From Xanthomonas rydalmerensis (lineage in GTDB: Bacteria > Pseudomonadota > Gammaproteobacteria > Xanthomonadales > Xanthomonadaceae), in contig NZ_CP126170.1 of NCBI RefSeq assembly GCF_033170385.1, positions 2,504,001 to 2,568,000 on the forward strand: a DNA stretch of 64,000 nt, read 5' to 3'. The notes below the pieces were generated by a model. The model saw only the letters and a list, made by a program, of their open reading frames with translations. It ran no database searches and had not been told where the DNA came from. Made by a program: the position numbers and the translations under genes. Below, in pieces: positions 54,506 through 57,922 of the stretch (position 1 is its first letter; every line of letters starts with the position of its first letter).

Positions 54506-54557
54506 ATACAAAAGACCGCCATCGCCGACGGCGCGGTAGACAAGGCGAAAGAAGCCC

Positions 54558-54584
54558 TAAAGTTTGCCGGAGCGCGGTCGAATC
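54558..54584 (+). promoter_or_regulatory. Upstream sigma-28-like motif of fliC copy 1
   Basis: TAAA at 54558-54561, 15 bases, then GTCGAATC. The -10 matches GCCGATAA poorly. In copy 2 the same place reads GCCGAAAC, a better match. It may be a second promoter or a relic. Confidence 0.45.
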
Positions 54585-54651
54585 AGGCTCTTCGCCGTGG
54601 CCCGGGTCTTTTGCGCATTGTCGGAACGGCAAATTTTCTGCAGTAAACCGC

Positions 54652-54678
54652 TAAAGGTTGCGCACCTGTCGCCGTTAC
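54652..54678 (+). promoter_or_regulatory. Main sigma-28 promoter of fliC copy 1
   Basis: TAAA at 54652-54655, 15-base spacer, GCCGTTAC at 54671-54678, identical at the -10 to the flgM promoter and kept in the second flagellin copy. Transcription should begin near 54685, giving a leader of about 88 bases. Confidence 0.85.
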
Positions 54679-54773
54679 TTATATCACCAGCCGCACTGGC
54701 CAATTGATGGCCCCCTGCGGAGACTCCAGGCACCAACCGGTCGCCGGACAAATCGCTAAGAGGAGATATCAAA

Positions 54774-55961
54774 ATGGCACAGGTCATCAATACCAACGTA
54801 ATGTCGCTGAACGCTCAGCGCAACCTCAACACCACCAGCACCAGCCTGGCGACGACGATCCAGCGCCTGTCTTCCGGCCTGCGCATCAACAGCGCCAAGG
54901 ACGACGCGGCCGGCCTGGCGATCTCCGAGCGCTTCACCACCCAGATCCGCGGTCTGGACGTGGCCTCGCGCAACGCCAACGACGGCATCTCGCTGGCGCA
55001 GACCGCCGAAGGCGCGATGGTCGAAATCGGCAACAACCTGCAGCGTATCCGCGAACTGTCGGTGCAGTCGGCCAATGCCACCAACTCCAGCACCGACCGT
55101 GGTGCGCTGAACTCGGAAGTCAAGCAGCTGACTGCGGAAATCGACCGTGTCTCCAAGCAGACCAACTTCAACGGCACCAAGCTGCTGGACGGTTCGTTCT
55201 CCGGCGCGCTGTTCCAGGTCGGCGCCGACGCCGGCCAGACCATCGGCATCAACACCATCGTCAACGCCAGCGCCGCCTCGCTGGGCAAGGCCGGCTTCGC
55301 CGCCACCCAGACCGGTTCGGCCGCCCTGGCCTCCGGCACCGCGACCGCCAGCGGCAGCTTCTCCGGCATGGTCGTCAACGGCGTCACCATCGCCTCGGTC
55401 TCGGTGGCCGCCGGCGATGCCGGTGCCGACGTGGCCAAGAAGATCGCCTCGGCGATCAACGACCAGCTGGCGCAGACCGGCGTGTACGCCTCGATCGACC
55501 CGACCAGCAGCGCGCTGAAGCTGGAATCGGTCAAGGGCGGCCAGGACTTCTCGTTCACCGCCGGCTCGGCCACCGGTGCCACCGGCATCACCTTCAGCAA
55601 CGCCGGCATCGCCGCCAGCGCCACTGCCACCGCCGGTACCACCAACTACCTGCAGGACCTGGATATCTCCACCTTCCAGGGCGCGCAGAAGGCGCTGAGC
55701 ATCGTCGACAACGCGCTGACCGCGGTGAACTCCTCGCGTGCCGACATGGGTGCGATCCAGAACCGCTTCACCTCCACCATCGCCAACCTGAGCTCCACCT
55801 CGGAGAACCTGTCGGCCTCGCGCAGCCGCATCCGCGATACCGACTACGCCAAGGAAACCGCCGAGTTGACCCGCACGCAGATCCTGCAGCAGGCCGGCAC
55901 CGCGATGCTGGCCCAGGCCAAGCAGGCGCCGCAGAGCGTGCTGAGCCTGCTCCAGGGCTAA
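54774..55961 (+). CDS. fliC: Flagellin, copy 1 (ATG start)
   Basis: 395 residues. Conserved D0/D1 ends: MAQVINTNVMSLNAQRNL with IQRLSSGLRINSAKDDAAGLAI at the N-terminus, and RSRIRDTDYAKETAELTRTQ with QQAGTAMLAQAKQAPQSVLSLLQG at the C-terminus. The middle (about 180-300) is Ser/Thr/Ala-rich and variable. No Cys. The ribosome site AGGAG is 8 bases before the ATG. The protein differs from copy 2 at five positions only (23, 105, about 158, 166 and 167). Named fliC here without implying it is the only one. Confidence 0.97.
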   Translation: MAQVINTNVMSLNAQRNLNTTSTSLATTIQRLSSGLRINSAKDDAAGLAISERFTTQIRGLDVASRNANDGISLAQTAEGAMVEIGNNLQRIRELSVQSANATNSSTDRGALNSEVKQLTAEIDRVSKQTNFNGTKLLDGSFSGALFQVGADAGQTIGINTIVNASAASLGKAGFAATQTGSAALASGTATASGSFSGMVVNGVTIASVSVAAGDAGADVAKKIASAINDQLAQTGVYASIDPTSSALKLESVKGGQDFSFTAGSATGATGITFSNAGIAASATATAGTTNYLQDLDISTFQGAQKALSIVDNALTAVNSSRADMGAIQNRFTSTIANLSSTSENLSASRSRIRDTDYAKETAELTRTQILQQAGTAMLAQAKQAPQSVLSLLQG

Positions 55962-55987
55962 GCGCGACACGCCGCAGCGTGACACCG

Positions 55988-56016
55988 GGCCCCTCCGCAA
56001 GGAGGGGCCTTTTTTT
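55988..56016 (+). terminator. Terminator of fliC copy 1
   Basis: 9-bp stem GGCCCCTCC / GGAGGGGCC with a GCAA loop followed by seven T residues. A textbook intrinsic terminator, duplicated at copy 2. Confidence 0.95.
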
Positions 56017-56459
56017 ATTCGGTTCCGACGCGGCGGGAGTGCATGTCGGACAACACGGCGTCACCGCCGTTACTCGATGCTGCGTTGAACCCGCATGTGC
56101 CGCACCCGCGGTTGGCGTGCCCGACCTACGGCCCACTGGCTGGAGCGGCTGGACGGTCTCGGCCGGCATTGCCAGGCCATGCGGCCGTTGGACGATGGCG
56201 TGGGCAAGGCGGTACGCAGGGCCCCCGGTGCACGCTGCCATTGCCATTGGGGCGACCGAAGATGGCCAGCGCCATCGACTTCCTAACGCGCAGGAACCCG
56301 GTCTCGGACCGGCGGACTGGAGTGCGGACAGGGGTCAGGCGTTAGCGGTGGACGCGGCCGCATGTTGGCGAGGTCATCCAGCATCTTCTATGGCGCCCGC
56401 GATGGCATCGACGTCTTCCGCATCGATCCACGCCGCCGTGTCCCGGACTTGCATGCTGG
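56017..56459. other. Unique spacer between the two flagellin copies
   Basis: About 440 bases not shared between the copies. Open frames are short. One of them, near 56095-56286, has G/C-rich third positions and a helical-looking peptide (HWLERLDGLGRHCQAM), so it may be the remains of a former gene lost when or after the flagellin duplicated. I could not assign it. Confidence 0.5.
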
Positions 56460-56462
56460 ACC

Positions 56463-56489
56463 TAAAGTTTGCCAAAGCGCGGCCGAAAC
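56463..56489 (+). promoter_or_regulatory. Upstream sigma-28-like motif of fliC copy 2
   Basis: TAAA at 56463-56466, 15 bases, GCCGAAAC at 56482-56489. Closer to GCCGATAA than the copy-1 counterpart. Confidence 0.55.
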
Positions 56490-56557
56490 AAGCTCTTCGC
56501 CGCGTTTTGGGTGGCTTGCAAATCATCGCGCCGCCATATTTTTGCGCAGCAAATCAC

Positions 56558-56584
56558 TAAAGGTTGCGGGCTTGCCGCCGTTAC
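56558..56584 (+). promoter_or_regulatory. Main sigma-28 promoter of fliC copy 2
   Basis: TAAA at 56558-56561, 15-base spacer, GCCGTTAC at 56577-56584. Conserved with copy 1 although the spacer sequence differs. Confidence 0.85.
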
Positions 56585-56678
56585 TTGTATCAGCAGCGGC
56601 ACTGGCCAATTGATGGCCCCCTGCGGAGACTCCAGGCAACAAAAGTTGCCGGACAAATCGCTTACAGGAGATATCAAC

Positions 56679-57866
56679 GTGGCACAGGTCATCAATACCA
56701 ACGTAATGTCGCTGAACGCTCAGCGCAACCTCAACACCACCAGCGCCAGCCTGGCGACGACGATCCAGCGTCTGTCCTCGGGCCTGCGCATCAACAGCGC
56801 CAAGGACGATGCGGCCGGCCTGGCGATCTCGGAGCGCTTCACCACCCAGATCCGTGGCCTGGATGTGGCCTCGCGCAACGCCAACGACGGCATCTCGCTG
56901 GCGCAGACCGCCGAAGGCGCGATGGTCGAAATCGGCAACAACCTGCAGCGTATCCGCGAACTGTCGGTACAGTCGGCCAACGCCACCAACTCCACCACCG
57001 ACCGTGGTGCGCTGAACTCGGAAGTCAAGCAGCTGACCGCGGAAATCGACCGCGTCTCCAAGCAGACCAACTTCAACGGCACCAAGCTGCTGGACGGTTC
57101 GTTCTCCGGCGCGCTGTTCCAGGTCGGCGCCGACGCCGGCCAGACCATCGGCATCAACAGCATCGTCAACGCCAGCGCCTCGGCCCTGGGCAAGGCCGGC
57201 TTCGCCGCCACGCAGACCGGCTCGGCCGCCCTGGCCTCCGGCACCGCGACCGCCAGCGGCAGCTTCTCCGGCATGGTCGTCAACGGCGTCACCATCGCCT
57301 CGGTCTCGGTGGCCGCCGGCGATGCCGGTGCCGACGTGGCCAAGAAGATCGCCTCGGCGATCAACGACCAGCTGGCGCAGACCGGCGTGTACGCCTCGAT
57401 CGACCCGACCAGCAGCGCGCTGAAGCTGGAATCGGTCAAGGGCGGCCAGGACTTCTCGTTCACCGCCGGCTCGGCCACCGGTGCCACCGGCATCACCTTC
57501 AGCAACGCCGGCATCGCCGCCAGCGCCACTGCCACCGCCGGTACCACCAACTACCTGCAGGACCTGGATATCTCCACCTTCCAGGGCGCGCAGAAGGCGC
57601 TGAGCATCGTCGACAACGCGCTGACCGCGGTGAACTCCTCGCGTGCCGACATGGGTGCGATCCAGAACCGCTTCACCTCCACCATCGCCAACCTGAGCTC
57701 CACCTCGGAGAACCTGTCGGCCTCGCGCAGCCGCATCCGCGATACCGACTACGCCAAGGAAACCGCCGAGCTGACCCGCACGCAGATCCTGCAGCAGGCC
57801 GGCACCGCGATGCTGGCCCAGGCCAAGCAGGCGCCGCAGAGCGTGCTGAGCCTGCTCCAGGGCTAA
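56679..57866 (+). CDS. fliC2: Flagellin, copy 2 (GTG start)
   Basis: 395 residues, same length as copy 1 and about 99% identical. The start codon is GTG where copy 1 has ATG; the ribosome site (AGGAGATATCAAC) and second codon GCA are conserved, and no upstream in-frame ATG gives a flagellin N-terminus. This should lower translation relative to copy 1. All conserved D0/D1 flagellin segments are intact, so it is not a pseudogene. It has its own promoter and terminator. The symbol fliC2 only marks the second copy. Confidence 0.96.
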   Translation: MAQVINTNVMSLNAQRNLNTTSASLATTIQRLSSGLRINSAKDDAAGLAISERFTTQIRGLDVASRNANDGISLAQTAEGAMVEIGNNLQRIRELSVQSANATNSTTDRGALNSEVKQLTAEIDRVSKQTNFNGTKLLDGSFSGALFQVGADAGQTIGINSIVNASASALGKAGFAATQTGSAALASGTATASGSFSGMVVNGVTIASVSVAAGDAGADVAKKIASAINDQLAQTGVYASIDPTSSALKLESVKGGQDFSFTAGSATGATGITFSNAGIAASATATAGTTNYLQDLDISTFQGAQKALSIVDNALTAVNSSRADMGAIQNRFTSTIANLSSTSENLSASRSRIRDTDYAKETAELTRTQILQQAGTAMLAQAKQAPQSVLSLLQG

Positions 57867-57892
57867 GCGCGACACGCCGCAACTTGACACCG

Positions 57893-57922
57893 GGCCCCTC
57901 CGCAAGGAGGGGCCTTTTTTTT
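57893..57922 (+). terminator. Terminator of fliC copy 2
   Basis: Same stem and GCAA loop as after copy 1 (57893-57901 with 57906-57914), followed by eight T residues. Confidence 0.95.

What the first reader, a model, noticed from the sequence alone, without database searches (positions are those of the whole stretch)
54555..57922. Tandem flagellin genes with a gene-conversion boundary in mid-gene
Copy 1 (54774-55961) and copy 2 (56679-57866) are the same length and duplicated together with promoters, leader and terminator. By eye they differ at about 22 sites in the first 543 bases, most of them synonymous, but from 55317 to 55976 (660 bases) at only one site (55866/57771). Such an abrupt change in silent divergence points to recent gene conversion of the 3' half, while the 5' half and promoters have been left to diverge.
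Basis: partly seen in the sequence, partly recalled or inferred. Interest (0 to 1): 0.7.

Follow-up and report, generated by a model that had tools for sequence, protein, structure and literature searches.

The report
Tandem flagellins homogenised by gene conversion
Two neighbouring flagellin genes in a Xanthomonas-like bacterium differ at 22 sites in their first half but at only one in their second half, and in related species the promoters group by gene copy while the second halves mostly group by species, which is likely the work of repeated gene conversion that keeps the two genes alike, a process already known from other bacteria.

Summary
fliC1 (54774-55961) and fliC2 (56679-57866) differ at 22 sites in nt 1-543 and at 1 in nt 544-1188; a change-point scan puts the step at nt 543/544 (0 of 20000 permutations). 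It is not constraint: between species the second half diverges more than the first (mean 0.061 against 0.034). Seven of 20 genomes of the genus carry 2-3 tandem fliC copies. All seven copy-1 promoters form one clade (99/98), so the duplication likely predates these species; the 3' halves group by genome in five of the seven (window pair 98/94). That is concerted evolution, with the window's step as its clearest tract. Gene conversion is the likely mechanism; array expansion/contraction is not excluded, and no raw reads were available. Homogenised duplicate flagellins are known from Campylobacter. Less ordinary: relative to divergence between species, the variable centre is the most homogenised segment here, whereas in 44 of 44 copy pairs compared from 13 arrays of other genera the centre is the least alike.

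The parts
53232..54437 (+). flgL, upstream neighbour (unique flank of copy 1)
   Evidence: read; found upstream of fliC in all 20 genomes of the genus
54556..56016 (+). duplicated unit, copy 1 (promoter boxes, leader, fliC1, terminator)
   Evidence: self blastn, 1394 of 1462 identical over the unit
54558..54584 (+). sigma-28-like box P1 of copy 1 (TAAAGTTT-N11-GTCGAATC), predicted
   Evidence: 12 of 16 to the recalled consensus; a P1 box stands at the same place in 14 of 14 copy-1 and copy-2 upstream regions of the seven genomes
54652..54678 (+). sigma-28-like box P2 of copy 1 (TAAAGGTT-N11-GCCGTTAC), predicted
   Evidence: 13 of 16
54774..55961 (+). fliC1, flagellin, ATG start, 395 aa
   Evidence: PF00669, PF07196, PF00700 above cut-off
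55317..55976 (+). homogenised stretch in copy 1 (660 nt, one mismatch to copy 2)
55987..56016 (+). terminator-like hairpin with T run after fliC1
   Evidence: read directly; same in copy 2
56017..56460 (.). spacer between the units
56461..57921 (+). duplicated unit, copy 2
   Evidence: self blastn
56463..56489 (+). sigma-28-like box P1 of copy 2 (TAAAGTTT-N11-GCCGAAAC), predicted
   Evidence: 14 of 16
56558..56584 (+). sigma-28-like box P2 of copy 2 (TAAAGGTT-N11-GCCGTTAC), predicted
   Evidence: 13 of 16
56679..57866 (+). fliC2, flagellin, GTG start, 395 aa
   Evidence: PF00669, PF07196, PF00700; the only GTG start among 17 copies in the seven genomes
57222..57881 (+). homogenised stretch in copy 2
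57892..57922 (+). terminator-like hairpin with T run after fliC2
   Evidence: read directly
58066..59388 (+). fliD, downstream neighbour (unique flank of copy 2)
   Evidence: ORF; found downstream of fliC in 19 of 20 genomes of the genus, not in G019

Best explanation
These are two tandem flagellin genes, likely older than the species that share them, whose 3' halves were likely made identical by a recent gene conversion (RecA-type homologous recombination between the direct repeats, inferred) while their promoters kept separate histories. Shown: the step; the grouping of promoters by copy in seven of seven genomes; the grouping of 3' halves by genome in five of seven (copies 1-2 of G000, G006, G007, G011, G013; G009 and G010 mix with each other). 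Inferred: that exchange was non-reciprocal, that it ran over about 550-660 nt or up to the end of the repeat, that the one later difference (fliC1 nt 1093, T there against C in the 16 other copies of the clade) arose after it, and that the two copies deliver nearly the same filament protein under two promoter regions. The donor copy could not be determined.
For: 22/1 split with change point LR 41.0, 0 of 20000 permutations. Cross-species control: the window's copies against G006_1, G006_2, G007_1, G013_1 and G013_2 (10 comparisons) differ at 12-29 sites in nt 1-543 and at 18-31 after it; Fisher p 3.2e-6 to 1.8e-4 against the window's 22/1. Longest run of identical variable sites 104 (nt 544-1071), 0 of 2000 shuffles. 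Trees: seven of seven copy-1 promoters one clade 99/98; CDS 544-1185 groups the window pair 98/94, G006 pair 100/98, G007 pair 100/99, G011 trio 100/100, G013 copies 1-2 96/93. AU tests: copy-1 clade rejected in the 3' half (p 1.8e-68); window pair as a clade rejected for the promoter (p 0.03). Within-genome distance of copies 1-2 over same-copy distance between genomes: 2.06 upstream, 0.51 in nt 1-543, 0.17 in nt 544-1185, 0.04 in nt 595-693.
Against: The 5' half does not reject the window pair as a clade (AU p 0.08), so the contrast inside the gene is one of degree; in nt 991-1185 the ratio is back at 0.71-0.77. Synonymous sites alone place the step earlier and less sharply. Steps also occur between genomes (13 of 123 pairs at 5 of 500 shuffles or fewer), so the locus is mosaic for more than one reason, probably including transfer between species (G009/G010). 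Only 3 of 13 within-genome pairs show a step at that level. Copies 3 of G009 and G013 do not group with their own copies 1-2. No reads and no second strain of the window's species were available.
Confidence: 0.8

Rival explanations
1. Array expansion and contraction: unequal crossing over between copies (2 to 3 copies and back) spread one 3' half, without non-reciprocal conversion.
For: Copy number changes in the clade: 3 copies in G009, G011, G013, 2 in G000, G006, G007, G010; the 95-97 nt gap before copy 3 looks alike in the three, so copies were gained or lost by some recombination.
Against: Copies 1 and 2 keep their own promoters and positions in all seven genomes, which repeated turnover would tend to scramble.
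Confidence: 0.15
2. Recent tandem duplication, after which the 5' half and promoter of one copy were replaced by DNA from another strain or species.
For: Transfer between species looks likely at this locus elsewhere (G009/G010).
Against: Both promoter types exist in all seven genomes and copy-1 promoters form one clade, so the duplication looks old; the closest copy of another genome still differs at 17 sites from the fliC1 5' half and at 12 from that of fliC2.
Confidence: 0.03
3. Stronger purifying selection or a lower mutation rate in the 3' half.
For: The last stretch (nt 991-1185) varies little between genomes (0.014-0.019).
Against: Between genomes nt 544-1185 is more variable than nt 1-543 (0.061 against 0.034); 111 of the 171 variable sites of the other 15 copies lie there.
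Confidence: 0.01
4. Assembly artefact: the 3' halves were collapsed or copied by the assembler.
For: Near-identical repeats of 660 nt are hard for short reads; no reads were available.
Against: The genome is one contig; the stretch holds a copy-specific base (nt 1093) and two more lie between it and the terminator; four other genomes group their copies 1-2 in the 3' half, and long identical runs lie at other places in G010 (nt 482-969) and G011 (nt 445-861).
Confidence: 0.03

Closest known systems
Campylobacter flaA/flaB duplicate flagellins
   Same: Two tandem, 95% identical flagellin genes under separate promoters, with recombination reported between the copies (passages of PMC5126078, which cites Harrington 1997 and Wassenaar 1995). 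[quoted passage not shown]
   Different: There sigma-28 serves flaA and sigma-54 flaB; here both copies carry two sigma-28-like boxes (sigma-54 sites not scanned).
Stenotrophomonas maltophilia fliC1-fliC2-fliC3
   Same: Same family, tandem flagellins beside fliD (passages and section 2.4 of PMC8998449).
   Different: There one operon, promoter activity found only upstream of fliC1, proteins 67-82% identical; here the proteins are 98% identical, with 717 nt between the genes, a terminator-like hairpin and promoter boxes of their own.
Single fliC of the other genomes of the genus
   Same: Between flgL and fliD in 12 of 13 (fliD elsewhere in G019); the two promoter boxes are there in the 4 of 13 that were scanned, one with a changed first box (G005).
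   Different: One copy in 13 of the 20 genomes.

Membership tests
Bacterial flagellin (FliC) | Flagellin_N and Flagellin_C domains at the ends | tested here: met
   PF00669 residues 5-142 and PF00700 residues 308-393 in both copies
Concertedly evolving duplicate genes | Copies within a genome more alike than the same copy between species | tested here: met
   Ratio 0.17 for nt 544-1185, 0.51 for nt 1-543 (copies 1-2, seven genomes); copies 3 of G009 and G013 are exceptions
Concertedly evolving duplicate genes | Duplication older than the species split | tested here: met
   Copy-1 promoters of seven genomes form one clade 99/98; in 10 of 225 upstream columns copies 1 and 2 share no letter across the seven
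Concertedly evolving duplicate genes | Discrete exchange tract | tested here: met
   Change point nt 543/544; run of 104 identical variable sites; less sharp by synonymous codons alone
Campylobacter flaA/flaB type | Different sigma factors for the two copies | tested here: inconclusive
   Both copies have sigma-28-like boxes (consensus recalled); sigma-54 sites were not scanned for
Campylobacter flaA/flaB type | Major and minor flagellin in one filament | not testable with these tools
   Needs protein data
Stenotrophomonas fliC operon | Short gaps and one promoter for all copies | tested here: not met
   717 nt gap with terminator-like hairpin and promoter boxes; only the copy 2-3 gap of G009, G011, G013 is short and without such boxes
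Silent-cassette antigenic variation | Further flagellin copies elsewhere in the genome | tested here: not met
   Only two matches in the whole genome at E 1e-3 by protein search; short DNA fragments were not searched

The most novel reading that the evidence does not exclude
In this clade recombination treats flagellin duplicates the other way round from the rest of the family: it keeps the variable, probably surface-exposed centre identical between copies within a genome, lets it diverge fast between species, and spares the promoters in seven of seven genomes, so that selection maintains two differently regulated genes for one antigenically uniform filament. Sister species may even have fixed different ancient paralogue types (G006 against G007).
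Probability: 0.3. Interest if true: 0.5.

Novelty: new member of a known kind. Interest (0 to 1): 0.33.

Why it matters
Trees built from flagellin coding sequence alone would date these duplications after speciation, as was inferred for multiple flagellins from protein clustering in PMC8998449 (section 2.4); the promoters here show that such a reading can mislead. The clade also offers a natural experiment, with seven species, on why coding sequence is homogenised while promoters are not.

Tried and rejected
Constraint or mutation rate as the cause of the step: rejected by the cross-species control. Recent duplication: disfavoured by promoter grouping. Finding the donor copy: no by-copy site is left in the 3' half in any of the six comparisons with the window, so it cannot be named. 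Opposite homogenisation in sister species G006 and G007: G006 falls with the window, not with G007; AU p 0.007 (5' half) and 0.055 (3' half); kept only as a lead, because transfer between species would look the same. RNA families: two matches to BjrC68 far below its gathering score (E 0.011 and 0.24) at the 3' ends of the two genes, over the terminators; taken as chance. Plasmid collection: 6 records, 60-90% identity, none covering 80% of the query (the five listed cover 9-21%), so no near relative there. The spacer 56017-56460: blastn matches its middle to no other genome's spacer, although G009, G010, G011 and G013 share theirs and G006 and G007 have a 147 nt match; not explained. Literature: eight searches ('Xanthomonas, flagellin, gene conversion'; 'tandem flagellin genes, gene conversion'; 'concerted evolution, flagellin genes'; 'Xanthomonas sacchari, flagellin'; 'flagellin, gene conversion, fliC'; 'Stenotrophomonas maltophilia, fliC1, fliC2'; 'Xanthomonas, two flagellin genes'; 'flagellin paralogs, recombination') list, by title and start of abstract, no report of this locus. 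Only PMC8998449 (passages and one section) and PMC5126078 (passages) were opened; the library lacks most subscription journals.

Full report
What is there. The window carries flgL, two flagellin genes and fliD in a row on the + strand. fliC1 (54774-55961, ATG) and fliC2 (56679-57866, GTG) are both 1188 nt and align without gaps. Both carry Flagellin_N, a Flagellin_IN motif and Flagellin_C. The duplicated unit is 54556-56016 and 56461-57921 and holds two sigma-28-like boxes (consensus recalled), a leader, the gene and a terminator-like hairpin. A protein search of the whole genome (5.04 Mb, one contig) finds no third copy at E 1e-3. Two relatives in the same genus, G001 and G015, have contigs of the same length as named X. 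albilineans CFBP2523 and Xanthomonas sp. AmX2 contigs (369347 and 175546 bases), so the window is taken as Xanthomonas-group; no call names its species.

The step. After that come two mismatches, then identity again to the end of the repeat at 56016, so the exchanged stretch may end anywhere up to there. Taking as yardstick the 179 sites that vary among the 17 copies of the seven multi-copy genomes (171 of them among the 15 copies other than the window's), the change point is nt 543/544: 22 of 67 sites before, 1 of 112 after, LR 41.0, 0 of 20000 permutations. Against 10 cross-species comparisons the Fisher p ranges from 3.2e-6 to 1.8e-4. With synonymous codons alone the step remains (LR 19.4, 9 of 20000) but falls between codons 125 and 140. 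The step is real; its exact place is soft. Among 13 within-genome pairs the window's LR is the highest; 3 of 13 reach 5 of 500 shuffles or fewer, and so do 13 of 123 between-genome pairs.

Relatives. Of 20 genomes of the genus (window included) 7 have tandem fliC: two copies in G000, G006, G007, G010, three in G009, G011, G013; 13 have one (a weak second match in G019, E 4.5e-4, lies where flgL is). The seven form one clade, 100/100, in a tree of flgK, flgL and part of rpoN; the order inside it is only moderately supported apart from G006+G007. All seven arrays lie between flgL and fliD.

Promoters by copy, genes mostly by genome. In the 222 nt upstream, the copy-1 sequences of the seven genomes form one clade (99/98); in 10 of 225 aligned columns copies 1 and 2 share no letter; the window pair as a clade is rejected (AU p 0.03). 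In nt 544-1185 copies group by genome: window pair 98/94, G006 100/98, G007 100/99, G011 trio 100/100, G013 copies 1-2 96/93; a copy-1 clade is rejected (AU p 1.8e-68). Exceptions: copies 3 of G009 and G013 stand apart from their own copies 1-2, and copies 1-2 of G009 mix with those of G010. The mean distance between copies 1 and 2 of one genome, divided by that between the same copy of two genomes, falls from 2.06 upstream to 0.51 in nt 1-543 and 0.17 in nt 544-1185, with 0.04-0.12 in nt 595-891, and rises to 0.71-0.77 in nt 991-1185, where little varies at all. So the duplication is likely older than the species, and the coding sequence has been homogenised repeatedly.

The 5' half is not free of exchange. 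Across the six comparisons with the window it has 55 by-genome, 11 by-copy and 4 crossed sites; the 3' half has 183, 0 and 0 (summed by me). The by-copy sites (nt 67, 93, 132, 177, 317, 482, 505) suggest that the 5' half was converted less recently or less completely; that 4 crossed sites stand beside 11 by-copy ones shows how thin this trace is. One difference in about 645 nt against 18-19 between the window and G006 suggests that the last exchange is a small fraction of that split's age; with one difference this is only rough.

Other arrays in the family. From those with several matches close together I fetched 13 stretches from other genera, not all there are; 40 genes and 44 within-array pairs were compared (in G102 the script recovered 2 of the 3 genes matched). 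In 44 of 44 pairs the middle of the gene (48-85% identical) is less alike than the first 450 nt (86-100%) and the last 300. Some pairs have identical runs of 428-500 nt with the first 450 nt 99.6-100% identical (G132, G164), so exchange with mid-gene limits probably occurs there too, at the other end of the gene. In the window's clade the centre is, relative to divergence between species, the most homogenised part of copies 1-2. The other arrays are more diverged overall, so the contrast may reflect age and constraint as well as exchange.

Mechanism. Most likely RecA-type recombination between direct repeats, resolved as gene conversion (inferred). On the 5' side the promoters differ by 15-26% between copies, which by itself would discourage exchange; selection for two promoter types is the alternative and is untested. 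Expansion and contraction of the array is the main rival, since copy number changes within the clade.

Comparison with the known. Recombination between tandem flagellins is reported for Campylobacter flaA/flaB (passages of PMC5126078). S. maltophilia has a three-gene fliC operon, and its authors inferred duplication after speciation from protein clustering (PMC8998449, passages and section 2.4); the present locus shows how homogenisation can create that pattern. I file the window's locus as a new member of a known kind.

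Noticed in passing
L117, L119, L121 (G009, G011, G013), gap between fliC copies 2 and 3: The third fliC follows the second after 95-97 nt with no sigma-28-like box but a strong predicted hairpin without a T run (fold z -4.5, -6.9, -3.5). Stable predicted structures also appear in the gaps of 9 of the 13 arrays of other genera that were folded, without shuffle control: possibly an mRNA-stabilising or attenuating element of flagellin operons.
   Followed up: partly
L134 (G206), gaps between fliC copies: Unlike the other folded arrays, the 192-229 nt gaps of this four-copy array hold a hairpin with a T run, and two of the three a TAAAGGTT box, by eye: another array whose copies may have their own promoters.
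   Followed up: no
G019:C1:958267 and G019:C1:2006119: In G019 fliD is not beside fliC but about 1.05 Mb away, so the flagellar cluster is split there.
   Followed up: partly
L117 and L118 (G009, G010), flgL-fliC1 gap: The 340 nt gap has one mismatch by eye (the 222 nt before fliC1 are identical) although flgK/flgL/rpoN are 95.1% identical and the spacer between copies 1 and 2 is 87.5%: probable transfer between the two species.
   Followed up: partly
window 56017-56460: Spacer between the units that blastn matches to no other genome's spacer, while those of G009, G010, G011 and G013 are alike.
   Followed up: partly
window 56679: fliC2 starts with GTG, the only one of 17 copies in the clade that does; it may lower its translation.
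   Followed up: no
L109, L112, L120 (G001, G004, G012) fliC: These single-copy relatives differ from the others in the otherwise conserved N-terminal stretch around residues 30-52.
   Followed up: no
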